NCBI RefSeq assembly: GCF_000820765.1
Contig: NZ_CCYH01000016.1
Location: 62,001 to 126,000, forward strand
Source: Candidatus Soleaferrea massiliensis AP7
Lineage (GTDB): Bacteria; Bacillota; Clostridia; Oscillospirales; Ruminococcaceae
Direction: 5' to 3'
Length of the DNA stretch: 64,000 nucleotides
The position numbers and the translations under genes were made by a program. The notes under the pieces are model-generated. The model worked only from the letters and a program-made list of their open reading frames with translations, did not search any database and was not told the DNA's origin. This document shows positions 11,282 to 61,428 of this stretch, piece by piece (the stretch's first letter is position 1; every line of letters begins with the position of its first letter).

Positions 11282-11416
11282 ATGATCATCGTGTATGCAA
11301 AGGCAGACCTGAATGCGCTGAGACAGCAGATAAAAGTTCTGCAGGATTATTGTGCACATACAAAGGCGGACGGTGTGATTGCATATGTCCGAGTCGGCAG
11401 GGACAGGGTTGTGTGA
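11282..11416 (+). pseudogene. Possible serine-recombinase N-terminal fragment
   Basis: A 44-codon frame from ATG 11282 reads IIVYAKADLNALRQQIKVLQDYC and later GVIAYVRVGRD. This resembles the start of the resolvase/invertase catalytic domain (VYARVS..., QIERL..YC) but lacks the rest of the protein and the usual catalytic Ser context. There is no convincing ribosome binding site. It may be a relic of a mobile element or chance similarity. It lies in the 516-nt gap between the glucokinase and murB genes, which otherwise holds only the flanking terminator and promoter. Confidence 0.25.
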
Positions 11417-48755: not shown

Positions 48756-49535
48756 TTATTTTTGATCCAGGAATTCTTCCAGGCACAGGCCGCTCTGCTG
48801 AATCTCAGCGGCATAATCCCTGCCGACATAACGGTAATGCCAGGGCTCGAAGATGATCTTGGTGATATCCTCTTTGTCCTTGGGGTAGCGCAGGATGAAG
48901 CCGTATTTGTACGCGTTGTTTTTGAGCCATTTTCCAGCGGCCGTGTCGGCGTAGCCGTCGTCCAGCGTTTGATAATCCGGCGTCACGATGTCAAGGGCAA
49001 GGCCGGTGTTGTGCTCGCTGCGGCCGGGAATCGCATAGGACTGCCCCGTGATGCGCCTGGCTTCGCTTTCTGAATAGCCTTCCTCCATCAGTTCCTGTAC
49101 ATTTCCTTCAAACAGGCTGGTCTGTTTTTCGATGCTGCGGTAGGCCGAGCAGACCAGCAGGTCCACGCCGTCGGCTTCCGCCGCGCTTTCCATCTGCTGG
49201 AACGCGTCGTAGATGCGCGCGTCGATCTCATAGCCGCCCTGTATCTGGGCGAGCTCCGGCACGGTGAAGCCGTCCGGAAGCGGATGATCGGCGTTTGCCA
49301 GAATGAGTCTCCAGTCGTCATCCTGAAAATCCTCTCCGCCGGTCGGCTTTGCGTCTTCCGAGCTGGTTTGCCCGGAGCTTTCGGACCCTTGAGCGTTGGA
49401 AGAAGCCTGTGAACTTACAGTGCTGTTGTCGGATGCATCCTGGGAGGATGCCTGATGATTCTGATTCATAGAACACCCCGTCATTGATATGATTGTCATG
49501 ATGGTCATAAGACACAACAATAAGGTTTTTTTCAT
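48756..49535 (-). CDS. VanY-like D-Ala-D-Ala carboxypeptidase lipoprotein (M15B)
   Basis: A 259-residue lipoprotein. A signal peptide ends in a lipobox with Cys21 (ISMTGC), and a Ser/Gln/Asp-rich linker (30-70) spaces the enzyme from the membrane. The M15B domain has the zinc ligands His175 and Asp182 in SEHNTGLALDIV and His233 in FEPWHYRYVG. It should trim D-Ala from peptidoglycan peptides outside the cell. No vancomycin-resistance genes are nearby, so a housekeeping wall role is more likely than resistance. Confidence 0.9.
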   Translation of the reverse strand: MKKTLLLCLMTIMTIISMTGCSMNQNHQASSQDASDNSTVSSQASSNAQGSESSGQTSSEDAKPTGGEDFQDDDWRLILANADHPLPDGFTVPELAQIQGGYEIDARIYDAFQQMESAAEADGVDLLVCSAYRSIEKQTSLFEGNVQELMEEGYSESEARRITGQSYAIPGRSEHNTGLALDIVTPDYQTLDDGYADTAAGKWLKNNAYKYGFILRYPKDKEDITKIIFEPWHYRYVGRDYAAEIQQSGLCLEEFLDQK

Positions 49536-50037: not shown

Positions 50038-50065
50038 TTGACCTGGAAAAATTTTATGCTATAAT
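50038..50065 (+). promoter_or_regulatory. Promoter of the riboswitch-controlled gene
   Basis: TTGACC (50038-50043), 16 bp, TATAAT (50060-50065). The aptamer begins about 45 nt downstream. Confidence 0.8.
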
Positions 50066-50109
50066 GGGTATAAACCATACGGAATTACTCGAGTTTAATT
50101 CGTGGTTCC

Positions 50110-50200
50110 CCCAATTGAATAATGGGCAAACTTACTGAAAGGTAAGGACGCAAAGCCATAGGGTCTACAGCCGTAAGGGTATGACAGCCGGTTGCAATTG
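50110..50200 (+). ncRNA. Cyclic di-GMP-I (GEMM-I) riboswitch
   Basis: The conserved core is present: GGGCAAA, a GAAA tetraloop in P2, GGACGCAAAGCC, then P3 with GGGTCTA and the tetraloop receptor side, and GACAGCCGGTTGC. The outer stem P1 pairs CAATTG (50112-50117) with CAATTG (50194-50199). Class I switches bind c-di-GMP. An intrinsic terminator lies 45 nt downstream, so control is probably at transcription termination. Whether it switches on or off cannot be read directly. Confidence 0.93.
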
Positions 50201-50244
50201 AAGCCACAGAGCCGAAAGGGGAGTCTGTGCGTTTGGATTACCTG

Positions 50245-50288
50245 CCGTCCGCCCGCATTCTATGCGTTATGGGGACGGTTTTTATTTT
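50245..50288 (+). terminator. Riboswitch expression-platform terminator
   Basis: Stem CCGTCC / GGACGG (50245-50250 with 50273-50278) with an inner GCAT/ATGC pairing, then TTTTTATTTT. It lies before the ribosome binding site of the M60 gene, so it regulates that gene. Confidence 0.85.
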
Positions 50289-50361
50289 GCAGAAAACCAG
50301 CTAAAGGGAGTGCCCCTCATCTTTGCATTCCTTCCATCAGGATCATGAAAGGAAGAGGAAC

Positions 50362-53300
50362 ATGAACAAAAAGAGATTTTATCAGAAGTCGGCAGCGGCC
50401 CTGCTCACCGTGGGCGTTCTGCTGACCCAGCTGCCGGCCGCCGCGCTGGGAGCGACTCCTCAGACGGAAAACACTACCACAACAGTAGGCGAAACCGCAC
50501 AGCCGGTTACGTATGACTCGGTTTTCAAAATTCCAAGAGAGGCGATCACCTCTATCACGAACAACGCCGGCCACTACGGCGGCAGCGTCATCGCCAACGC
50601 GATTGACGGCAGCAGGTCCACCCATTGGGAGACCAATAAACCGAATAACGCATCTTTCAACAATGCCGTGACCGTGACGTTCGACGGCCTGTATGAAATT
50701 GCCACGCTGAAATACCTGGTGCGTCAGGACGGCGGCCGTCCAAAGGGCTTCCCGCTTGAATACAACATCTATTACAGCACCAGTGAGAGCGGCGAGAATT
50801 TCAAACTGCTCAGGCACGGTACCTATGCTTCCGCCTCGGGCAGTGAGGTTTCGATTCAGGTGGAGCCGACCGAGGTGCGCAGGGTGCGCTTCGAATTTGT
50901 GCGCGCCCAAGGCAACTGGGCAAGCATGGCGGAGCTTTCCTTCTACCGGTATGACGAGCTGGCCGAGCGCATCGACGATGTGTTCACCGACAAGACCTAT
51001 TCCGCCCTTTCGGAGGAGTACAGAGATGCCGCAAAGCTTGACAGGCTGGCGCAGCTTGCTAAGGTCCATCCGGACAAGGCAAAGTATGAGCGGTTCTTAA
51101 ACGCCGCGTACGAGCTGCTGGAAAACCCCGGTGCGTTTGACAGCCGGGTGTTCACCGCATCTCAGCGCGGCAACTTCGACAAGGAGAAGAACCGGTCGAA
51201 GATCTCCTGGACGATGTATTCCTACGATTCCACCGGCTACTACGTCACGCCGGGCGAAACCATCTATGTCTATGTCGATGCCGACCAGAACAGCGTGATG
51301 CCGAAGCTGCTGTTCGGACAGATTGCGAAGGACAAGAACGACTGGCGCCGCTGGTTTACGCTGAAGCCGGGGCTCAATGTCATCACGGCGCAGACCATAG
51401 ACAAGATGAACCCTGCGGCCATCTATATCTACAACCCGGCGCTTCCGGAGGATCAGGCGTACGCACCCCGTGTCCGGATCGAAGGCGGCACCAAGTTCCC
51501 GCTGTATGTGCACGGCAAGACCGACCCGCAGGACTTTGAAAATGAACTGCGTGAATACCTGAAAAATGTCAGCTACAACGACAACGACTTCGCCGACGGC
51601 AACCCGAACGGCTACTATTACAACATCGCCGAGGTGGCGTCGGAGAACTGCACCATCACGACAAGCGCGGCGGGCTGCCTGAACGGCATCACCAACAGGC
51701 CGGGCAAGACCATCGCGGATACGATGGACATCTGGGAAGACATGTACTACAGCTATGCGAAGTATTCCGGCTTCGACACCGAGGATCCCACATCGGATGA
51801 CTATATGCCGCGCATCAAGTTCAACTGCCGCGTCTTCTGCCAGGGTCCGTTCGGCTGGGCGGATACCGGCTATAACGGCTTCAACGGCGGAAACAGCCAG
51901 AAGCGCGACAACAATTTCTTCTCCAGCATCGTTTCCTACAACACCATCACCTCCGGCGGATGGGCACTGTTCCATGAAATCGGACATTCCTATGACTCCG
52001 CGCCGCTGGGCGTCAGCGAATCCACCAACAACCTGTATTCCCTGATGATGCAGGATAAATACATCCCGAACAACCGTCTGGTAACCGGACAGCTCTGGAA
52101 GAACAATATTGAGCCGTTCCACAATATCGCGGACCGTTCCACCAGGGATGCAAAGAACATCTGGACCTACCTTGCCGTTGTCAACCAGCTCGAGCTGGTC
52201 TACGGACGCGAAACCCTCTACGGACAGGCGCAGAAGATCGCGCGCCGCGATACGACAGGCATGCTGGGCGGCCTCAACAAATATGAGAGAATGGCAGTCA
52301 CCATGAGCAAGGCGGCGGGCTATGACCTGACCGGACATTTTGAGTATTACTGCCTGCCGATCGGCGAAAAGGCTAAAAGCCTGGTTGCCGATCTGCCGAA
52401 GGACGGCAAGAAGACCTACTATGTCAACAATAAATACATAGCAGACGATGCTGCGGCCTTCTCCAACCCGGATGCAAAGCCGGTTGTCACGACTGCCGGA
52501 AGCGGCGAAATCCGGCTGAACCTCTCGATTGACGAGCCGGACAACGCGGTCCTGTGCTACGAAATCTACCGGAACGGCGAGAAGATCGGCGTGACCTATT
52601 CCGACACCTATGTGGACAAAAATACCGAGGCGAACACCGTATACACCTATGCGGCCATCGCCTATGACCGCAAGCTCGGCGCGTCCCAAATGAGCGAAGG
52701 TGTACAGAAGAATTCCAGCGAACCGGCGCTGATGACCACAGGAGACCCGGTTGTCTCGCTGCGCGCGGACTTTGACCCGATGCGCTTCATCACGGCTAAA
52801 GATGCGGCGGGCGTGAGCATCACCGACCGTGTCGTGGTGGAAGCGGACAATGTCAACACAAGCGAAAAGGGAACCTATGAGGTTGCCTACCGCGTAGCCG
52901 ACACATTCGGAAACGAGAGCACGCTCAAGCTGCCGGTCCGGGTTGTGAGCGACAGCACCTATCTCAGCGATATGAACTGGAAATCCGCGCAGACCGGCTG
53001 GGGATCGATCCGCAAGGACAAGAGCGTAACCCAGAAGGCCATCTCGCTGCTCAGCGAAAAAGGGGAGCAGACCTTTACCAAGGGCATCGGCACACACGCG
53101 AATTCCACGATTGTGTACGACATCTCGAAGTCAGGCGCGCAGACCTTTGAGGCCTATGTCGGCGTTGACGGCGCGATGCGTTCGGCAAATGCGTCCTCGC
53201 TGACCTTCGAAGTCTATGTCGACGGCGTCAAGCAGTATGAAAGCGGCGTCATGAAGAAGGACACGCCGGCCAAATTTGTCAGCATGAACGTCAAGGACGC

Positions 53301-54522
53301 GAAAGAACTCAAACTGGTCGTCACCGACGGCGGCAACGGCAATGGAAGCGACCATGCCGACTGGGCCGACGCAAAGCTGATCAACGACGACGCGCGCCCG
53401 ACCATCAGCGGACTGTCCTATCAGAGCTGCAGGGTCGGCGGATCGGTCGACCTGATGTCCGGCGTCACTGCGTATGACATCGAGGACGGCGACCTGACCG
53501 GTTCGGTTGAGATGAGCACCGATTTCACATCCGAGCAGCCCGGCGTCTATGACGTGCGTTACAGCGTCACCGATTCGGACGGCAACACCACGGTGGAAAC
53601 CAGAACGGTTGCGGTCACCAACGCGGCGGTGTATGCAAGCGACGTCAGCTGGCAGCAGGCCTCCATCGGCTGGGGCTCGATCGGAAAGGACAAAGCGGTT
53701 TCCGGAAACGCCCTGCGCCTGAATGCGGGCGACGGCAGCTGGAAGACCTACGAAAAGGGCATCGGCACCCACGCGTATTCCCAGATCACCTATGATTTGA
53801 CCGGCAAGGGCTTCTATGCGTTCGAAAGCTACATCGGCGTCGACGGCGCGATGAAAAACTCGGGCGTTTCCTCGATCACCTTCGAGGTCTATGTCGACGG
53901 TGTCAAACGGTATGACAGCGGGCTGATGAAATCCAACACCCCGCAGAAGTTCGTTTCGGTCAACCTGAACGGCGCGTCCACGCTCAAGCTGGTGGTGACC
54001 GCCGCGGGCAACGGCAACGGAAGCGATCATGGCGACTGGGCCGATGCGAAGTTCCTGACCGTTCTGGACAAATCCGAATTGGAGCAGGTTCTTCTGGAAG
54101 CGGAGAGCAAACGGGAATCCGATTATACAGAGGAGAGCCTTGCGGCGTTTACCCAAAGCAGGCAGCAGGCCCGCGAGGTGCTGGAAAACGAGACGGCTAC
54201 CGCGCAACAGGCAGCAGAGGCCGTCCAGGCCCTGCGCAGCGCGATGGACGGACTGGTCCCGGCGATTGACCGGCAGGCGCTCCAGGACATTGTGGACTAT
54301 GCCAGCCGGATTGACAGTGTATCCTATGTTGATCCCACTTGGAAGCACAGGGATATCCGGTATGAAAACTTTGTAGCCGTCATGGCTGACTATGCTTGGG
54401 TGCTGGAATCTCCCGATGCAACCCAGCAGAAGGTAGACGACACCGTTAAAGTCCTGCAATATTTTGTTGAAGAGCTGGGCCAGACCTACCAGGCTGGCGG
54501 AACTCCGGTTAAATTTCAATAG
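50362..54522 (+). CDS. Secreted M60-family (mucinase-like) metallopeptidase with carbohydrate-binding modules
   Basis: A 1386-residue secreted protein. Domains in order: signal peptide (1 to about 30); CBM32/F5-8C domain (about 55-205); peptidase M60 region (about 290-650) with zinc motif HEIGH at 538-542 and Glu553; FN3-like domain (about 710-780); two Ig-like domains (about 795-865 and 1013-1088), each followed by an NPCBM/CBM51 domain (about 868-1005 and 1090-1235); FIVAR-like helical module (about 1240-1310). M60 enzymes of gut bacteria cleave mucin-type O-glycoproteins. No sorting signal is present, so it is released or held by its sugar-binding domains. GGAAGAGGAA precedes ATG 50362. 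Expression is under the c-di-GMP riboswitch. Confidence 0.9.
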   Translation: MNKKRFYQKSAAALLTVGVLLTQLPAAALGATPQTENTTTTVGETAQPVTYDSVFKIPREAITSITNNAGHYGGSVIANAIDGSRSTHWETNKPNNASFNNAVTVTFDGLYEIATLKYLVRQDGGRPKGFPLEYNIYYSTSESGENFKLLRHGTYASASGSEVSIQVEPTEVRRVRFEFVRAQGNWASMAELSFYRYDELAERIDDVFTDKTYSALSEEYRDAAKLDRLAQLAKVHPDKAKYERFLNAAYELLENPGAFDSRVFTASQRGNFDKEKNRSKISWTMYSYDSTGYYVTPGETIYVYVDADQNSVMPKLLFGQIAKDKNDWRRWFTLKPGLNVITAQTIDKMNPAAIYIYNPALPEDQAYAPRVRIEGGTKFPLYVHGKTDPQDFENELREYLKNVSYNDNDFADGNPNGYYYNIAEVASENCTITTSAAGCLNGITNRPGKTIADTMDIWEDMYYSYAKYSGFDTEDPTSDDYMPRIKFNCRVFCQGPFGWADTGYNGFNGGNSQKRDNNFFSSIVSYNTITSGGWALFHEIGHSYDSAPLGVSESTNNLYSLMMQDKYIPNNRLVTGQLWKNNIEPFHNIADRSTRDAKNIWTYLAVVNQLELVYGRETLYGQAQKIARRDTTGMLGGLNKYERMAVTMSKAAGYDLTGHFEYYCLPIGEKAKSLVADLPKDGKKTYYVNNKYIADDAAAFSNPDAKPVVTTAGSGEIRLNLSIDEPDNAVLCYEIYRNGEKIGVTYSDTYVDKNTEANTVYTYAAIAYDRKLGASQMSEGVQKNSSEPALMTTGDPVVSLRADFDPMRFITAKDAAGVSITDRVVVEADNVNTSEKGTYEVAYRVADTFGNESTLKLPVRVVSDSTYLSDMNWKSAQTGWGSIRKDKSVTQKAISLLSEKGEQTFTKGIGTHANSTIVYDISKSGAQTFEAYVGVDGAMRSANASSLTFEVYVDGVKQYESGVMKKDTPAKFVSMNVKDAKELKLVVTDGGNGNGSDHADWADAKLINDDARPTISGLSYQSCRVGGSVDLMSGVTAYDIEDGDLTGSVEMSTDFTSEQPGVYDVRYSVTDSDGNTTVETRTVAVTNAAVYASDVSWQQASIGWGSIGKDKAVSGNALRLNAGDGSWKTYEKGIGTHAYSQITYDLTGKGFYAFESYIGVDGAMKNSGVSSITFEVYVDGVKRYDSGLMKSNTPQKFVSVNLNGASTLKLVVTAAGNGNGSDHGDWADAKFLTVLDKSELEQVLLEAESKRESDYTEESLAAFTQSRQQAREVLENETATAQQAAEAVQALRSAMDGLVPAIDRQALQDIVDYASRIDSVSYVDPTWKHRDIRYENFVAVMADYAWVLESPDATQQKVDDTVKVLQYFVEELGQTYQAGGTPVKFQ

Positions 54523-54536
54523 TCTTATTCTCTAAA

Positions 54537-54574
54537 ACAGACCGGCGCACCAACAGGTGCGCCGGTCTGTTTTT
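54537..54574 (+). terminator. Terminator after the M60 gene
   Basis: A perfect 15-bp stem ACAGACCGGCGCACC / GGTGCGCCGGTCTGT with AACA loop, then TTTTAT. Confidence 0.92.
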
Positions 54575-54696
54575 ATATGTCTGCTCAGTCGATCTGCTGA
54601 AATCTGGGCTGGATGGTTTTGGCCGCAGATACGCTGTCAACCAGCATGCCCTACGTCGGTTTTCCCCGTTCGAAAATGCCCGGGTACGATTTATCG

Positions 54697-54739: not shown

Positions 54740-56050
54740 TCAGGCTTTGGTGTGCGTATTGGCTGTGACGGGGTTCATGCGGTTGTTGATCAGCACATTG
54801 ACATGGAAGCGGCCTTCCTCAGCCGTGAAACTGATGCTGCCGTCATACTGCTTTACAATGTTCTGGATGATCGAGATGCCCAGTCCATGACTGTCCTTAT
54901 CTAATTTGGTTGTTTCCAGCTTGGGATTGTTCTGCAGGACGTCCTGAGCCGCTTCGTTGGACACGGCTATCTGCAGGCACTGCTGAAACGATGCGATTTT
55001 AACCTTGATATTCGGTTCCTTTATGTTAGCCGACGCTTCAATTGCGTTGTCCAGAAGATTGGAAAGAATCGCGCATAGATCCAGATTGCGGACATGGATC
55101 TCAGGCAGTGCGGAAAGCTGCAGCTGCATCGGGATTTTCTTCGCATGCGCCAGAGCGCTTTTGTTGTTGAGCACCGCGTCGATCGCCGGGTTGCCGGTCC
55201 GTATCTGCGTGAGGAACGGCGACGCTTCGCCGGCCAGATCATCGAAGTAGTTGCGCAGCTCGTCATACTGTTCCTTTTCAAGCAGGACACGCATACAGAG
55301 AAGCTGGTTTTTAAAATCATGCCGGATGGATTTCAGCGTGTCAAAGGACCGCTTGCTTTCCTTGTAATCCTGCATTTGAAGCTGCAGATATTGCGTATTC
55401 AGATAAAAACGGATCTTGTCCTCATAATCATTTACAATTTTTGCAAAGATCACATACAATAGCAGGTTGATGACCAGAGTGCTTGCAAAAAACATCAGCA
55501 GGATTTTTTCCGGTACGGATACACGCAGAAACAGGAAGACGGAAGAAAAGTTCAGCACCGGAACGATGATCAGGATGCTCAGGTAAGAAAACGGCAGGTC
55601 ATAACAGCTCTTCATCCGGTATTTTGACATCAGGTAAGCGCACAGCACCAGCAGGGATTTGGACAGGATGAAGGTGGCCGAGCTGTTGCTTTCGATGCCA
55701 AGGGAATCGGTGATCAGGTTCAGGGAGGTTTCGGTGATGCGCTGGATGGAGACCAGCGAGCACAGGTAGACGGTGATGGCGGTCAGCTTGTAGGGGAGCC
55801 GGTCCTGCAGGAACAGGACGCTCAGCAGGACGGTCGAAACAAAGAGGATGCCAAGATATCCCCAAAAGCTGTTCCAGGTGTTGAATCGATGGTTGATCAT
55901 GAGCAGAACCGATTCGGCCAGGCAGAAAACGGACATCCAGACACGAACAAAACGGATCTGTTCCCTGGGCTGGTAAAGCTTCTGCAGGATGTATGCGGCC
56001 GCGCCGGTTTCGGCGATGAAGGACAGGAACACAATGATATCGGAAAACAT
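54740..56050 (-). CDS. AgrC-like sensor histidine kinase (GHKL type)
   Basis: A 436-residue kinase. The N-terminal half (1-205) holds about six membrane helices forming the sensor. The dimerisation helix carries the phospho-acceptor His244 in SIRHDFKNQLL, as in peptide-sensing HPK10 kinases. The GHKL ATPase has NLLDNAIEAS and HGLGISIIQNIV. It starts 3 nt after the response-regulator stop. No agrB or agrD (signal peptide and processing) is nearby, so the ligand is unknown. Confidence 0.9.
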   Translation of the reverse strand: MFSDIIVFLSFIAETGAAAYILQKLYQPREQIRFVRVWMSVFCLAESVLLMINHRFNTWNSFWGYLGILFVSTVLLSVLFLQDRLPYKLTAITVYLCSLVSIQRITETSLNLITDSLGIESNSSATFILSKSLLVLCAYLMSKYRMKSCYDLPFSYLSILIIVPVLNFSSVFLFLRVSVPEKILLMFFASTLVINLLLYVIFAKIVNDYEDKIRFYLNTQYLQLQMQDYKESKRSFDTLKSIRHDFKNQLLCMRVLLEKEQYDELRNYFDDLAGEASPFLTQIRTGNPAIDAVLNNKSALAHAKKIPMQLQLSALPEIHVRNLDLCAILSNLLDNAIEASANIKEPNIKVKIASFQQCLQIAVSNEAAQDVLQNNPKLETTKLDKDSHGLGISIIQNIVKQYDGSISFTAEEGRFHVNVLINNRMNPVTANTHTKA

Positions 56051-56052
56051 AT

Positions 56053-56760
56053 TCAGATCAGCCTCCCAAACTCCTCAAATACCTGAGCCGCCCGTTTCCG
56101 GCTGACCGGCAGGCATTCTCCGGATTCCAATACGATCTCGTAGTTGTTGCCGATGTTTTTGATGCGGTTGATATACCGGTAGTTTACAAGATACCCCTTG
56201 TGAATTCGGATAAATCCGTAGCCCTGCAGCTTTTCCTCGATGTCCATCATGCGGTAGCGCAGCTCGGTGGTATCCGTTGGGGATACGATTTTCAGCGTCT
56301 TGTTGTTGCATTCGATGTATTTAATCCGGCTTGGCGCGATGCGCAGCTGATAATTTCCATTGGAGAGCACGATATGATCCTTCGAGCTGCACAGCTCGGT
56401 CGCCAAAGCCCGAACCGTTTCATCGATTTCCTGTTCGAAGCAGCTTTTGCGAATGAAGCGGAACGGCTGGAACTGGAACGATTCGTAGACGGTGTCCTCC
56501 TTATTCGAGACAAAGATGATGAGGCATTCATGTGTGGAACGGCAAAGGTACCGGCTGATGTCGAAGCCGCTGACCTGCGGCATATCGATGTCGAGAAAGA
56601 CAGCGTCATAAAAATCGGTCTCCAGCTTTGTGACAAATTCGGCGCTGTTCCCGAACGTGTCGATGGTCACCGCCATCTTCTGCTGGTCGAAGGATTCTTT
56701 GACCCTGTCGGCAATGTAGGCAAGAATTCTCTTTTCATCATCGCAGACTGCTATCTTCAT
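56053..56760 (-). CDS. LytTR-family response regulator (AgrA-like)
   Basis: A 235-residue regulator. The receiver has the acidic pair at residues 7-8 (CDDEK), phospho-acceptor Asp57 in AVFLDIDMP and Lys in FVSNKED. The C-terminal LytTR DNA-binding domain has SRIKYIECNNKTLKI, the typical RIHKGYLVNYRYINRI and the end. ATG 56760 has GGGAGCGG upstream. It precedes the kinase gene in the same operon. The target genes are not evident; nearby surface genes are candidates. Confidence 0.92.
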   Translation of the reverse strand: MKIAVCDDEKRILAYIADRVKESFDQQKMAVTIDTFGNSAEFVTKLETDFYDAVFLDIDMPQVSGFDISRYLCRSTHECLIIFVSNKEDTVYESFQFQPFRFIRKSCFEQEIDETVRALATELCSSKDHIVLSNGNYQLRIAPSRIKYIECNNKTLKIVSPTDTTELRYRMMDIEEKLQGYGFIRIHKGYLVNYRYINRIKNIGNNYEIVLESGECLPVSRKRAAQVFEEFGRLI

Positions 56761-56789
56761 ACTAACCGCTCCCAAAATTCATTAAGCTT

Positions 56790-57471: not shown

Positions 57472-60400
57472 TTACTGTTCTTTTCTGCGTTTCTTCGCGA
57501 GAACTGCCGTGAGGCCGCCGACTGCGATAAGCGACAGAACGGCTGCGATCGGCGTTGTGTCGCCGGTGTTGACGTTCTTTTTCTTGTTGCCTGCCGCGGT
57601 GCTGCCGGTAGAGACATCGCCGGTGCCGGCCACGTTGCTGGACGGTTTCTTGCTGGAGTTGTCTGTCTGATTGTCGTCCGGCTTGCTGTCGTCCGGATTT
57701 ACCGGATCCTTGCTCGTGTTAGAATCGTCGCCGCCGTTGTCGGAGATCAATTCCAGATTGTTCAGCGCCTTCTGCAGTTCGATTTCCTGTACGGCGACCT
57801 TGCTCTGATCGTCCACGCTCAGGTCTGCGGCCATTACATCTTCCGCATCTGCGATGGCGGTCCGCAGCATCTGTACGCTGGCTGCGGTGTAGAGACTCAG
57901 ATCCTTGGATTTCGCCTGTTTGAGCAGTGCATCCAGGTTGGATTTGTTGGCCTTGAGCCGCAGCTCCAGGATGGCGTTCATCAGACGATCGGTAGCGTCG
58001 TCGATCTCGGTCTGCGTTGCGAAGTCCTCTTCATAGAGTTCCTGCGCGGCGGACAGAGCATCTTTGAATTCCTGTTTGCCGTTTTCCACATAGTTGTCGA
58101 GGTTGTAGGTGCCCGCTGCCGTGATGGCATCCAGAAGGAGGGTCTTGTCCCCGCTCTGCAGGCCCAGTCCATGAATCCATTTGACCAGATCGGTCCAGGC
58201 GTCGAAGACTTCTTCCTTGGTGGCGTTCTTGTCTGCATATACCGTCTCAGCGGCTGCCAGGGAGGCTTCGAAGCCCTTTCTGACATCTTCGATCACATAC
58301 TTGTAATCAGCGTCTTTCTGGCGGTCCTTTGCATAGTTGATGGCGCTTTCGAGAAGCTTTTTGTTGACCTGTGTATCCGGATCAGGCTCTTCGCCGCCCT
58401 CTTTGCTGACGTTGACAACCTTGGTCTCAACGAAATTATCGGAGGATTTGCCGACGTAGAAATTGCGGTCGCCTTCGATGACGGTGTATTTGTCTTTGGT
58501 TCCGTCGGAACGGACATAGTATTCGTCCAGATCGACATTCCAGTAGGACAGCGCGCGCTGGCTGACATGAATGGTGACGGTTTCGCTCTCGCCAGCATCC
58601 AGGATGCCGGTGCGCTCATAGCCTACCAGCTGGTATTTCGCCTGCTGTACGCCGTCGATCAGCGGGAAGTAATCCGCCTCGAGGACATTGGTTTCGTCTG
58701 CGCCGTCGCTGAAGGAATATCTCCAGCTGTCGCTGACATCGTATGGGCTGTATACGCCGTTTTCAAGATCTGCCGCGCCGATATAGATCTGCGGAGCGTC
58801 GGAGCCGCTGGCTGTGCCGTTGTTGGTGACCTTGACCTTGAAGTCGTAGCCGTATTCATCCACGCCTGTGGTGGACGGTTCTACGCCGACCAGCTCATAG
58901 TCGAAGTCGGTGTAGGAGAGACCGTAGCCGAAGTCGTACAGGACTTTATCCTGCTTGTCCGCTGCGTCGTACCATTTGTAGCCGTTGAAGATACCTTCCT
59001 TGATTTCGCTCTTGGTGACGAACGGGCCGGTGGATGCGCCGACATTTCCTCTGCCGTTGGTGGCGATTTCGCTCTGGTCCGCGCTGAAGTCGTTCGGCCA
59101 GGTGACGGAGAGCTTACCGGACGGATTGGTTTTGCCGGAGAGCAGGTTTGCGACTGCAGTGCCGCCGCCCTGACCCGGGAGCCACATTTCCAGGATTGCG
59201 TCAACGTCGTCCACCCATGCGGAGATGTCAACCGGAAGCGCGGTGTTCAGCACGAGGGTGACCTTGTTGCCGGCTGCCTTTGCTGCCGCGATGGATTCGT
59301 TCAGAAGCTGGGTCTGGTCGCTGTCCAGTGTCAGCGATTCGGTGGAATGTGCGAACAGTACAACAGAGGTGCCTTCGGCGCCTGCTGCCGCGATGGCGTC
59401 ATTGTAGTTGTTTTCTTTCTGGGACGGGGTGATCCAGGCGAGACGGACCTGCATGTCCTTGATGCCTGCCTGATAGCTGTAGTTCTCTGCATAATTGCCG
59501 TTTGCACTGACTGTGATTTTATAGGTTTTACCTGCTTCCAGTGTAAAGGAATTGCTTGCAGAAGGTTTGCTGGAGCCGCCTGGGAAGCCGCCGCCACCGC
59601 CGCCGGCTTTCGGGATGTCAAGTCCGGTATCGGTGGAAACGATGTTGGTGCTGGCGTAGGTGCCGATTTCCAAAGAACCGCCTGCGCTGCTGACGTTCTT
59701 TTCTTCGCCGTCGATTTCAATGGTTGCGCTGATGCTCGGCGCCGCGATTGCCTGCACATCCAGCGTGTAGGTGCCGGATTCCGGAGCCTTCAGGTAGGTG
59801 GTCCAGGTGTAGTTCGCACCCTGTTCACCATACGGGAATGCATTGCCGTCCTCGGCGTTGACATAGTCTAAGGAGTTGGTGACAAAGTTGATGTTTGCGT
59901 CCACGCCGTTGTTTTCAGCGCCGTAGCCGTCTGTTCCGGTGCGGATTACGCCCTGTTCGGTCGTGTCGGCATCCTGATAGAGGACATCGGACGGTACCGC
60001 TTCGCCGACGATATCCTGTGCGACGTAGGATTTGACGTTTGCATCCGAGAAGATTTCGCTGAGCGCGTCATACGGGCTGACCGAGAGTCCTCTCAGGGAG
60101 CCGAAGGAGCACTCATGCATATGGCCGGCAACCAGATGGGTGGAGCCGAGACCGATCATTGCGATGTTTTCATTCGAAGAGAGCGGGAGAGTCTCGTTTT
60201 CGTTCTTGACGAGGACGGCGCCCTTCTCAGCGAGCTCGATCGCTTTTTCATTGTTCTTGTTGAGCAGTGCCTCTCTGGCCTCACCGACCAGAACGTCCGG
60301 CAGCTCGATGGTGTCCGGCGGGTTTACATCCGCTGCTGCGGTGCCGTCGCGGCTGACCTGAACCATGTACAGATAGCCGACTTCACCCAGTGCGCGCAGA

Positions 60401-61428
60401 TTTGCGCGGACGGCTGTGTTGACGTCGTCCATCGTAATGGTGCCGTCTTCGAGGTTCTTTTTGATGGCGTCCGCATTGTTGTGCGTGCCGTTCGGGGTTT
60501 CCATGGTGACGCCGTTGTCGACCGTGAATTCATAGTTGCCGCCCCAGTCGGTCATGACCAGGCCGTCATAGCCCCACAGCTCCCGCAGAACGGTGCGCAG
60601 CAGGTAGGTGTCGGCGCAGGCGCTGACGCCGTTGACGTTGCCGTAGTTGGTCATAATGGCGGAAGCGCCGCCTTCTTTGATGGCCATCTCGGTGCTGGAG
60701 AGGTAGTTTTCATACAGTGTCTGCTCATCGACGTTGCCGATGCCGCCGAAGTGCTTCAGGGTCGCCATGGTGTTTTCAGACTGCATGCCCTGCGTCACAG
60801 CTGAGGAGATTTTGCCGGACAGGTACCAGTCCTCGCCGAACATATCCCTTGCGCGGCTGGTGGACAGCTGGCGGACGATGTCGTTCTGGTCGCCGAGCTG
60901 GTTGTTGCCGGAGTTCGCCTTGTTTTCCGCGCCGTACAGGACGCCGTATTCATAGGCGAGTTCATTGTCGAACGAGCTTGCGACGGAGATTTCGCTCGAA
61001 GGACGGGTCGTCTCGTAGCCGGCGTTTCCTTTGACGCCCATCGGGCCGTCGTACATGCGGATAACCGGAATGCCGAGTCTTGCAACGCCTTTCCAGTAGC
61101 CGGTTCCGTATGGCCGCTCAATATCCATGGCCGAGGTGTCCCAGCCCATGATGCCGTCTGCGCTGAGCATTTCGAACTTCTCTTCGTCGGTCAGTGTCTT
61201 CATCAGCGCGTCGATCTTCTGCTCGATCACGGTGTCCGATTCAATGACCAGAAAGTCCGAGGGATATTCCTCCGGGAAATCCGCCGTCAGGTTTCCGTAG
61301 CCGTCGTTGTGGATGTAGTCGCTCAGTTCCGAAGCGGAGGCCGGCAGACAGGTGAACATCGAAAATACCATAGCCGAAGCCATCACCGCGCAGAGAATCC
61401 TTTTTGAAAGTTTCTTCTTTGCATTCAT
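57472..61428 (-). CDS. Secreted, wall-anchored GH3 glycosidase
   Basis: A 1318-residue surface enzyme. Signal peptide (1 to about 33), GH3 N-terminal domain (about 65-365) with KHFG at 225-228 and the nucleophile Asp294 in VMTDWGG, and a GH3 C-terminal domain (about 395-860) interrupted by a PA14-like or lectin-like insert (about 530-660) and ending SYTDFDYELVGVEP. An FN3-like domain, three FIVAR-type helical repeats (about 1050-1240), a Ser/Asp/Lys-rich linker and a C-terminal NVNTGD plus hydrophobic helix and KKRRKEQ tail follow. The tail resembles variant sortase signals. Beta-glucosidase or xylosidase activity is likely; the sugar is not known. RBS GGAGCG precedes the ATG. Confidence 0.9.
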   Translation of the reverse strand: MNAKKKLSKRILCAVMASAMVFSMFTCLPASASELSDYIHNDGYGNLTADFPEEYPSDFLVIESDTVIEQKIDALMKTLTDEEKFEMLSADGIMGWDTSAMDIERPYGTGYWKGVARLGIPVIRMYDGPMGVKGNAGYETTRPSSEISVASSFDNELAYEYGVLYGAENKANSGNNQLGDQNDIVRQLSTSRARDMFGEDWYLSGKISSAVTQGMQSENTMATLKHFGGIGNVDEQTLYENYLSSTEMAIKEGGASAIMTNYGNVNGVSACADTYLLRTVLRELWGYDGLVMTDWGGNYEFTVDNGVTMETPNGTHNNADAIKKNLEDGTITMDDVNTAVRANLRALGEVGYLYMVQVSRDGTAAADVNPPDTIELPDVLVGEAREALLNKNNEKAIELAEKGAVLVKNENETLPLSSNENIAMIGLGSTHLVAGHMHECSFGSLRGLSVSPYDALSEIFSDANVKSYVAQDIVGEAVPSDVLYQDADTTEQGVIRTGTDGYGAENNGVDANINFVTNSLDYVNAEDGNAFPYGEQGANYTWTTYLKAPESGTYTLDVQAIAAPSISATIEIDGEEKNVSSAGGSLEIGTYASTNIVSTDTGLDIPKAGGGGGGFPGGSSKPSASNSFTLEAGKTYKITVSANGNYAENYSYQAGIKDMQVRLAWITPSQKENNYNDAIAAAGAEGTSVVLFAHSTESLTLDSDQTQLLNESIAAAKAAGNKVTLVLNTALPVDISAWVDDVDAILEMWLPGQGGGTAVANLLSGKTNPSGKLSVTWPNDFSADQSEIATNGRGNVGASTGPFVTKSEIKEGIFNGYKWYDAADKQDKVLYDFGYGLSYTDFDYELVGVEPSTTGVDEYGYDFKVKVTNNGTASGSDAPQIYIGAADLENGVYSPYDVSDSWRYSFSDGADETNVLEADYFPLIDGVQQAKYQLVGYERTGILDAGESETVTIHVSQRALSYWNVDLDEYYVRSDGTKDKYTVIEGDRNFYVGKSSDNFVETKVVNVSKEGGEEPDPDTQVNKKLLESAINYAKDRQKDADYKYVIEDVRKGFEASLAAAETVYADKNATKEEVFDAWTDLVKWIHGLGLQSGDKTLLLDAITAAGTYNLDNYVENGKQEFKDALSAAQELYEEDFATQTEIDDATDRLMNAILELRLKANKSNLDALLKQAKSKDLSLYTAASVQMLRTAIADAEDVMAADLSVDDQSKVAVQEIELQKALNNLELISDNGGDDSNTSKDPVNPDDSKPDDNQTDNSSKKPSSNVAGTGDVSTGSTAAGNKKKNVNTGDTTPIAAVLSLIAVGGLTAVLAKKRRKEQ

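What the first reader, a model, noticed from the sequence alone, without database searches (positions are those of the whole stretch)
50038..54522. c-di-GMP riboswitch controlling a mucinase-like M60 protein
A complete class I aptamer, a terminator platform and a 1386-residue M60 protein with CBM32 and two CBM51 domains are arranged in one unit. In Clostridioides difficile a class I switch controls the secreted protease PPEP-1 (Zmp1). Here an O-glycoprotein-degrading protein is linked to the same signal, tying attachment or motility decisions to host mucus use.
Basis: partly seen in the sequence, partly recalled or inferred. Interest (0 to 1): 0.6.

Follow-up and report, generated by a model that had tools for sequence, protein, structure and literature searches.

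The report
c-di-GMP switch on a mucinase gene
A bacterium carries an RNA switch for the signal molecule c-di-GMP in front of a secreted enzyme built like known mucus-protein-cutting enzymes, and the same pairing recurs in distant relatives, which suggests that cutting of host glycoproteins is often tied to the attach-or-leave signal.

Summary
Confirmed: a complete class I c-di-GMP aptamer (RF01051, 71.3 bits) lies at 50115-50199, behind a near-consensus promoter (50038-50065) and 162 bases before a 1386-residue M60 protein (50362-54522) with HEIGH...E, one CBM32-like and two CBM51 domains. Solved relatives include ZmpB of Clostridium perfringens. The genome has 22 GGDEF and 7 EAL matches, so the ligand is plausible.

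New here: the pairing recurs. Of 72 M60 genes examined, 13 (12 over Rfam's cut-off) have a class I aptamer 73-386 bases upstream, in seven family codes plus a named Clostridium MAG; 7 of 11 in the tree branch with the window protein. In 15 sampled genomes holding both parts, 8 pairings were seen against about 0.02 expected.

Folding predicts an OFF switch: without ligand, 50183-50192 pairs with 50240-50249 and masks the terminator's 5' arm; the folded aptamer forbids this. Eight of 11 such leaders tested show similar pairing, three do not.

Not supported: a tie to swimming (no flagellin match). Untested: ligand binding, switching, mucin cleavage. My paper searches found nothing joining M60 or mucinase with a c-di-GMP riboswitch. 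New target of a known switch; moderately interesting.

The parts
50038..50065 (+). sigma-70-type promoter TTGACC-N16-TATAAT with TG before the -10
   Evidence: consensus match only
50081..50109 (+). hairpin near the 5' end of the predicted transcript, before the aptamer; role unknown
   Evidence: folding; position checked
50112..50200 (+). aptamer with closing helix P1 (50112-50117 with 50195-50200)
   Evidence: (helix by sequence)
50115..50199 (+). c-di-GMP-I (RF01051) aptamer
   Evidence: 71.3 bits
50183..50192 (+). aptamer bases that form the 5' strand of the predicted antiterminator
50240..50249 (+). 3' strand of the predicted antiterminator, overlapping the terminator's 5' arm
50244..50288 (+). 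intrinsic terminator and U-tract
   Evidence: not listed by the simple scan
50350..50358 (+). probable ribosome-binding site AGGAAGAGG
   Evidence: by eye, position
50362..54522 (+). gene of the secreted ZmpB-like M60 protein, 1386 aa
50545..50937 (+). F5/8 type C (CBM32-like) domain, residues 62-192
51625..52347 (+). M60 peptidase domain, residues 422-662; HEIGH 538-542, E553
52954..53379 (+). first CBM51 (NPCBM), residues 865-1006
53608..54054 (+). second CBM51, about residues 1083-1231
   Evidence: second stretch; limits from the PDB match 2vmg
54537..54575 (.). hairpin with T-run after the stop codon, likely two-way terminator
   Evidence: by eye, arms located

Best explanation
A class I c-di-GMP riboswitch turns off transcription of a secreted ZmpB-like M60 O-glycopeptidase when c-di-GMP is high. 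Shown by sequence: aptamer, protein and their order, and recurrence of the pairing elsewhere. Predicted by folding: when c-di-GMP is low, aptamer bases 50183-50192 pair with 50240-50249 while the transcript ends at about 50251-50277; this hides the terminator's 5' arm and lets transcription pass. When c-di-GMP binds, the aptamer keeps these bases, the terminator forms and the gene stays off. Inferred: the enzyme binds host-type glycans through CBM32/CBM51 and cuts O-glycosylated protein, so it is made in the low-c-di-GMP (leaving or foraging) state, as PPEP-1 is in C. difficile.
For: RF01051 71.3 bits. Own genome: 22 GGDEF and 7 EAL matches. Class I aptamer 73-386 nt before 13 of 72 M60 genes; in 69 sources (1.0 Mb) the 12 matches with E below 0.001 are all in an M60 leader (the model was built with three of them). 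In 15 genomes with both parts 8 pairings against 0.017 expected. OFF logic: expected antiterminator pairs 5.7-7.8 without ligand at transcript ends 50251-50274, 0 with the aptamer helices enforced, and the terminator then forms; similar pairing in 8 of 11 M60 leaders tested. Cd1 of C. difficile has this layout (PMC9262584, passages). Protein: PDB 7js4 E 4.3e-167 over residues 260-1233; 5kdn/5kdu E 5.2e-46; PMC9325726 names 5KDU as ZmpB (passages).
Against: No binding or expression data. In the shuffle test the window's own antiterminator is moderate (14 of 200 shuffles as good); 3 of 11 leaders (L198, L226, L229) show none; three of the eight positive ones (two in L208, and L211) are near copies; terminator arms were picked by eye. 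At full length the terminator wins even without ligand, so the OFF model needs kinetic control; by secondary-structure energies alone the enforced aptamer costs 6.9-12.5 kcal/mol, tertiary contacts and ligand not modelled. The leader is not more stable than shuffles. 59 of 72 M60 genes show no aptamer, although in one of them (L205) the contig ends 28 bases before the gene.
Confidence: 0.6

Rival explanations
1. ON switch: c-di-GMP binding prevents the terminator, so the enzyme is made in the attached state.
For: Class I ON switches exist, for example Bc2 of Bacillus thuringiensis (PMC6366702, passages). The other aptamer at L005 in this genome looks ON by eye, its terminator arm overlapping the aptamer.
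Against: Here the terminator starts about 43 bases after the aptamer and coexists with it; the enforced aptamer favours it.
Confidence: 0.2
2. The switch is as described, but the enzyme's main job is not host mucus: it trims O-glycoproteins of the cell's own or neighbours' surface, as PPEP-1 sheds the cell's adhesins.
For: PPEP-1 precedent (PMC11477304, passages). Switch-linked M60 proteins vary in accessory domains: fn3 and dockerin in L198 and L226, fn3 in L152.
Against: CBM32 and CBM51 with M60 are typical of microbes of vertebrate mucosa (PMC3267712, passages), and solved kin include ZmpA, ZmpB and ZmpC.
Confidence: 0.25
3. The aptamer senses another cyclic dinucleotide such as cGAMP.
For: GEMM-Ib aptamers are close kin, and base 20 sets the choice (PMC6456294, passages). 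L005, L007 and L198 have A at that place (mapping recalled).
Against: The window has G there.
Confidence: 0.05
4. Chance neighbourhood or a dead switch without effect on the gene.
For: In C. difficile only 11 of 16 predicted c-di-GMP riboswitches are functional (PMC6366702, passages). Most M60 genes lack an aptamer.
Against: Recurrence far above chance at leader distances in distant M60 branches; no other gene start lies between promoter and M60 on that strand.
Confidence: 0.05

Closest known systems
Class I c-di-GMP OFF riboswitch of C. difficile ppep-1 (zmp1, CD2830)
   Same: class I switch before a secreted zinc metalloprotease; predicted same OFF polarity
   Different: PPEP-1 is a Pro-Pro endopeptidase that releases the cell's own adhesins (PMC11477304, passages); here a large M60 protein with glycan-binding modules
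Cd1 riboswitch (flgB operon, C. difficile)
   Same: aptamer and terminator coexist and compete with an antiterminator that uses the aptamer's 3' strand (PMC9262584, passages)
   Different: controls flagella there; no flagellin match in this genome
ZmpB of Clostridium perfringens (M60 mucinase; PDB 5kdn/5kdu)
   Same: M60 domain and sequence kinship (5kdn E 5.2e-46; 7js4, which I recall to be ZmpB too, E 4.3e-167)
   Different: c-di-GMP occurs in none of the 10 papers listed for ZmpB/O-glycopeptidase; whether zmpB itself has an aptamer was not tested
M60-like/PF13402 proteins of host-associated microbes (Nakjang 2012, PMC3267712)
   Same: HExxHX(8,28)E motif, CBM32 and CBM51 partners
   Different: the word riboswitch does not occur in that paper's main text

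Membership tests
c-di-GMP-I riboswitch (RF01051, GEMM-I) | covariance-model score over the gathering cut-off, full length | tested here: met
   71.3 against 35 bits, model 1-87
c-di-GMP-I riboswitch (RF01051, GEMM-I) | ligand-contacting bases G20, A47, C92 (Vc2 numbering) | tested here: inconclusive
   G 50125, A 50152, C 50195 at the aligned places; which model positions these numbers mean is recalled, not from a call
c-di-GMP-I riboswitch (RF01051, GEMM-I) | binds c-di-GMP | not testable with these tools
   needs in-line probing
c-di-GMP-I riboswitch (RF01051, GEMM-I) | expression platform that changes with the aptamer | tested here: inconclusive
   met as a folding prediction; shuffle control moderate for the window (14 of 200)
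GEMM-Ib (cGAMP) riboswitch | A at position 20 | tested here: not met
   G at model position 11 (position mapping recalled; role of base 20 from PMC6456294, passages)
Peptidase M60 / PF13402 | profile match over cut-off | tested here: met
   68.6 against 25.8 bits
Peptidase M60 / PF13402 | HExxHX(8,28)E | tested here: met
   HEIGH 538-542, E553; motif from PMC3267712, passages
ZmpB-like O-glycopeptidase | M60 with CBM32 and CBM51 modules, sequence kin of solved ZmpB | tested here: met
ZmpB-like O-glycopeptidase | cuts O-glycosylated peptide | not testable with these tools
   needs purified protein
PPEP-1-type Pro-Pro endopeptidase | belongs to the PPEP-1 protein family | tested here: not met
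   the seven Pfam families matched include M60 and no other peptidase domain

The most novel reading that the evidence does not exclude
Class I c-di-GMP switches are a standing control of ZmpB-type mucinases across Bacillota: old or repeatedly acquired in that branch (7 of 11 members here) and recruited several more times in the sister branch (6 of 49). If so, many gut Clostridia shut off glycoprotein cutting when c-di-GMP rises, a general rule linking c-di-GMP to mucus.
Probability: 0.5. Interest if true: 0.65.

Novelty: new member of a known kind. Interest (0 to 1): 0.5.

Why it matters
c-di-GMP switches are known to control flagella, pili, adhesins and, in C. difficile, one adhesin-shedding protease. 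A repeated link to ZmpB-like M60 enzymes would extend this to the cutting of host O-glycoproteins in non-model Clostridia, and it gives simple tests: does c-di-GMP silence these genes, and does that change contact with mucus?

Tried and rejected
Chance pairing: rejected by recurrence. A single change on the M60 tree: not supported; the careful tree of 60 M60 domains needs 6 changes of the label (5-95% range of 200 bootstrap trees 6-6), but gain and loss cannot be told apart. The first, quick tree of 70 rows needed 8 changes, 6 forced by starred branches. For the second tree I took out 11 rows, none with an aptamer: seven flagged as long branches and four (L210, L213, L233, L236) that form the far group with one of them; and I added L239. 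Two flagged rows stayed in (L208_4112, L230_10607), and warns that long branches meet, also at the split between the two main branches. L212, a broken M60 gene without HExxH, is in neither tree.

Of the 80 loci I scanned six for the aptamer: L007 (positive) and L008, L009, L017, L064, L066 (no credible match, one at E 0.33). The other 74 were not scanned. Phage records: one weak match to residues 1090-1231. All-Rfam scans (which would show class II switches too) covered 26 of the 70 M60 sources; the other 44 were scanned with my class I model alone. The word-start search for 'enhancin' was useless because it matched 'enhancing'; as a whole word, 0 papers.

A first attempt to enforce the aptamer in folding had no effect because of a wrong option; corrected. 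Only the corrected numbers are used for the enforced aptamer.

M60 rows dropped before counting: seven below Pfam's cut-off (in G840, G869, G609, G601, G766, G744, G751) and the second piece of the broken gene in G418. Loci that appeared in several searches were counted once.
Full report
What is there. A class I c-di-GMP aptamer (RF01051) covers 50115-50199 at 71.3 bits, twice the gathering score, over the whole model; no other Rfam match passes in the window. A promoter with 11 of 12 consensus letters lies at 50038-50065, though shuffles of the region give 2.2 promoter-like sites on average. An intrinsic terminator (dG -18.0, U-tract) follows at 50244-50288; the simple scan did not list it. 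The gene runs 50362-54522 and is followed by a hairpin with a T-run (by eye). Neighbours are on the other strand: a VanY-type carboxypeptidase at 48756-49535 and a GHKL kinase with a LytTR regulator at 54740-56775. So the leader appears to serve one gene.

The protein. A signal-like N-terminus (by eye), a CBM32-like domain, M60-like_N, M60 (422-662), two Ig-like and two CBM51 stretches and a sub-cut-off FIVAR match; no wall-anchor family was matched. The zinc motif is HEIGH (538-542) with E553, the pattern given for PF13402 in PMC3267712 (passages). The best solved relative is 7js4 (E 4.3e-167, residues 260-1233); 5kdn with 5kdu (5.2e-46), ZmpA (1.3e-43) and ZmpC (1.2e-38) follow further down; PMC9325726 names 5KDU as ZmpB (passages). 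Mucin cleavage is inferred from this kinship.

The signal. The genome (3.10 Mb, 51 contigs, 98.91% complete) has three class I aptamers, 22 GGDEF and 7 EAL matches, and no flagellin match. It has one M60 match. Another 43 places match parts of the protein, mostly its CBM51 and C-terminal regions; by the coordinates none lies within 10 kb of an aptamer. So among these related secreted proteins the switch stands only before the M60 gene.

Recurrence. M60 genes came from samples of the family (197 genomes, 16 with a match), order (394, 29), class (391, 33, of which 27 over cut-off) and phylum (398, 4), plus L007, the best relative. After merging and dropping sub-cut-off rows, 72 M60 rows were examined (71, L239). 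Thirteen have a class I aptamer on the same strand 73-386 bases before the start codon. Twelve pass Rfam's cut-off: window, L007, L152, L198, L208 (two genes), L211, L225, L226, L227, L229, L239. The thirteenth, L209, has 31.1 bits with my own model and is not in Rfam's list. My model was built from 29 aptamers that include those of the window, L007 and L152. Family codes with a pairing: f1, f13, f24, f65, f79, f81, f129. Without the window and L007, which were not drawn as samples, it is 11 of 70. In L205 the contig ends 28 bases before the gene, so its leader could not be read. In the class sample 166 of 391 genomes have a class I aptamer, 467 matches in all (a lower bound because few candidates per genome were scored; sum). 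Fifteen of these genomes also have an M60 gene over cut-off: 8 pairings seen, 0.017 expected if aptamers stood before random genes (assuming 900 genes per Mb); without the window's genome 7 against 0.016. Class I aptamers of the family also precede other kinds of gene: among the first open frames behind 31 of them I recognised, by eye, CheW-like, chemotaxis-receptor-like, pilin-like and several secreted proteins, so M60 is one target among many.

Tree. On the careful tree of 60 M60 domains the label needs 6 changes (bootstrap range 6-6) against 12.0 for shuffled labels. The branch with the window protein has 7 of 11 with aptamer; of these, window, L007 and L211 were checked and carry CBM51. 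The other branch has 6 of 49; of these, L152, L198 and L226 were checked and carry fn3, and L198 and L226 dockerin. So the pairing is old or repeatedly made in the ZmpB-like branch and sporadic in the other; the tree is unrooted and cannot tell gain from loss. The window protein is 37% identical to L211 (531 of 1445 columns) and 34% to L239 (416 of 1216), so sharing the switch is not due to near copies.

How it may work. In folds of growing transcripts without ligand, 50183-50192 (aptamer) pairs with 50240-50249 (expected pairs 5.7-7.8 for ends 50251-50274), until the terminator's 3' arm is out at about 50279. With the aptamer helices enforced this pairing is 0 and the terminator forms. That is an OFF switch of the Cd1 type, in which aptamer and terminator coexist and the antiterminator is only transiently stable (PMC9262584, passages). 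The same test on 11 M60 leaders (window included; L209 and L239 not tested) gives 2.9-12.1 expected pairs in 8 (shuffles as good: 0 to 17 of 200) and 0.0-0.35 in L198, L226 and L229. Three of the eight (both of L208, and L211) are near copies. The window alone is moderate, 14 of 200. The genome's two other switches give 1.5 (L004) and 0.06 (L005). In C. [quoted passage not shown]

What is known. Class I control of the secreted protease PPEP-1 is published (PMC11477304, passages). For M60 or mucinase with this riboswitch I found nothing: c-di-GMP + riboswitch + M60 + mucin gave one paper, on Vibrio GbpA (listing); 'peptidase M60' + riboswitch 0; enhancin + riboswitch as whole words 0; riboswitch + mucinase + c-di-GMP 0; c-di-GMP + riboswitch + M60 as whole words 0. 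The library holds open-licence papers only, so this is no proof of absence.

Verdict. Observation correct; interpretation mostly sound except for motility; the point of interest is the recurrence. New target of a known switch class.

Noticed in passing
L004:12671-12760 (-) = own genome C29:192670-192759: A class I c-di-GMP aptamer (80.5 bits) stands before a 133-aa sigma-70 region 4-like protein beside phage- or ICE-like replication genes (primase, polymerase and helicase by eye). The first frame behind the aptamer of L108, in another genome of the family, is a relative (39% over 133, E 4e-27). A mobile element may be reading the host's c-di-GMP.
   Followed up: partly
L005:6242-6324 (+) = own genome C32:26241-26323: The genome's third class I aptamer has A at the position-20 place and a terminator that overlaps the aptamer's 3' end (ON layout, by eye). 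The next large gene, about 800 bases on, is an 843-aa fusion of a TIM barrel and an AMP-binding ligase.
   Followed up: partly
L198:7096-7186, L007:3348-3434: M60-linked aptamers with A at the position-20 place; in L198 a neighbouring C-G pair appears as U-A, a compensatory change by eye. Their ligand could differ.
   Followed up: no
L208:6299-6383 and 11288-11372 (-): Two M60 genes side by side, each with its own, very similar class I switch and terminator, although the two M60 domains are far apart on the tree.
   Followed up: partly
window 57472-61428 (-): 1318-aa GH3 enzyme with PA14, Fn3-like and FIVAR domains and an NTGD-like C-terminal sortase signal (by eye), near the M60 gene.
   Followed up: no
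window 54740-56775 (-): GHKL histidine kinase and LytTR response regulator pair converging on the M60 gene.
   Followed up: no
window 50081-50109: Hairpin near the 5' end of the predicted transcript, before the aptamer; could protect the RNA.
   Followed up: no
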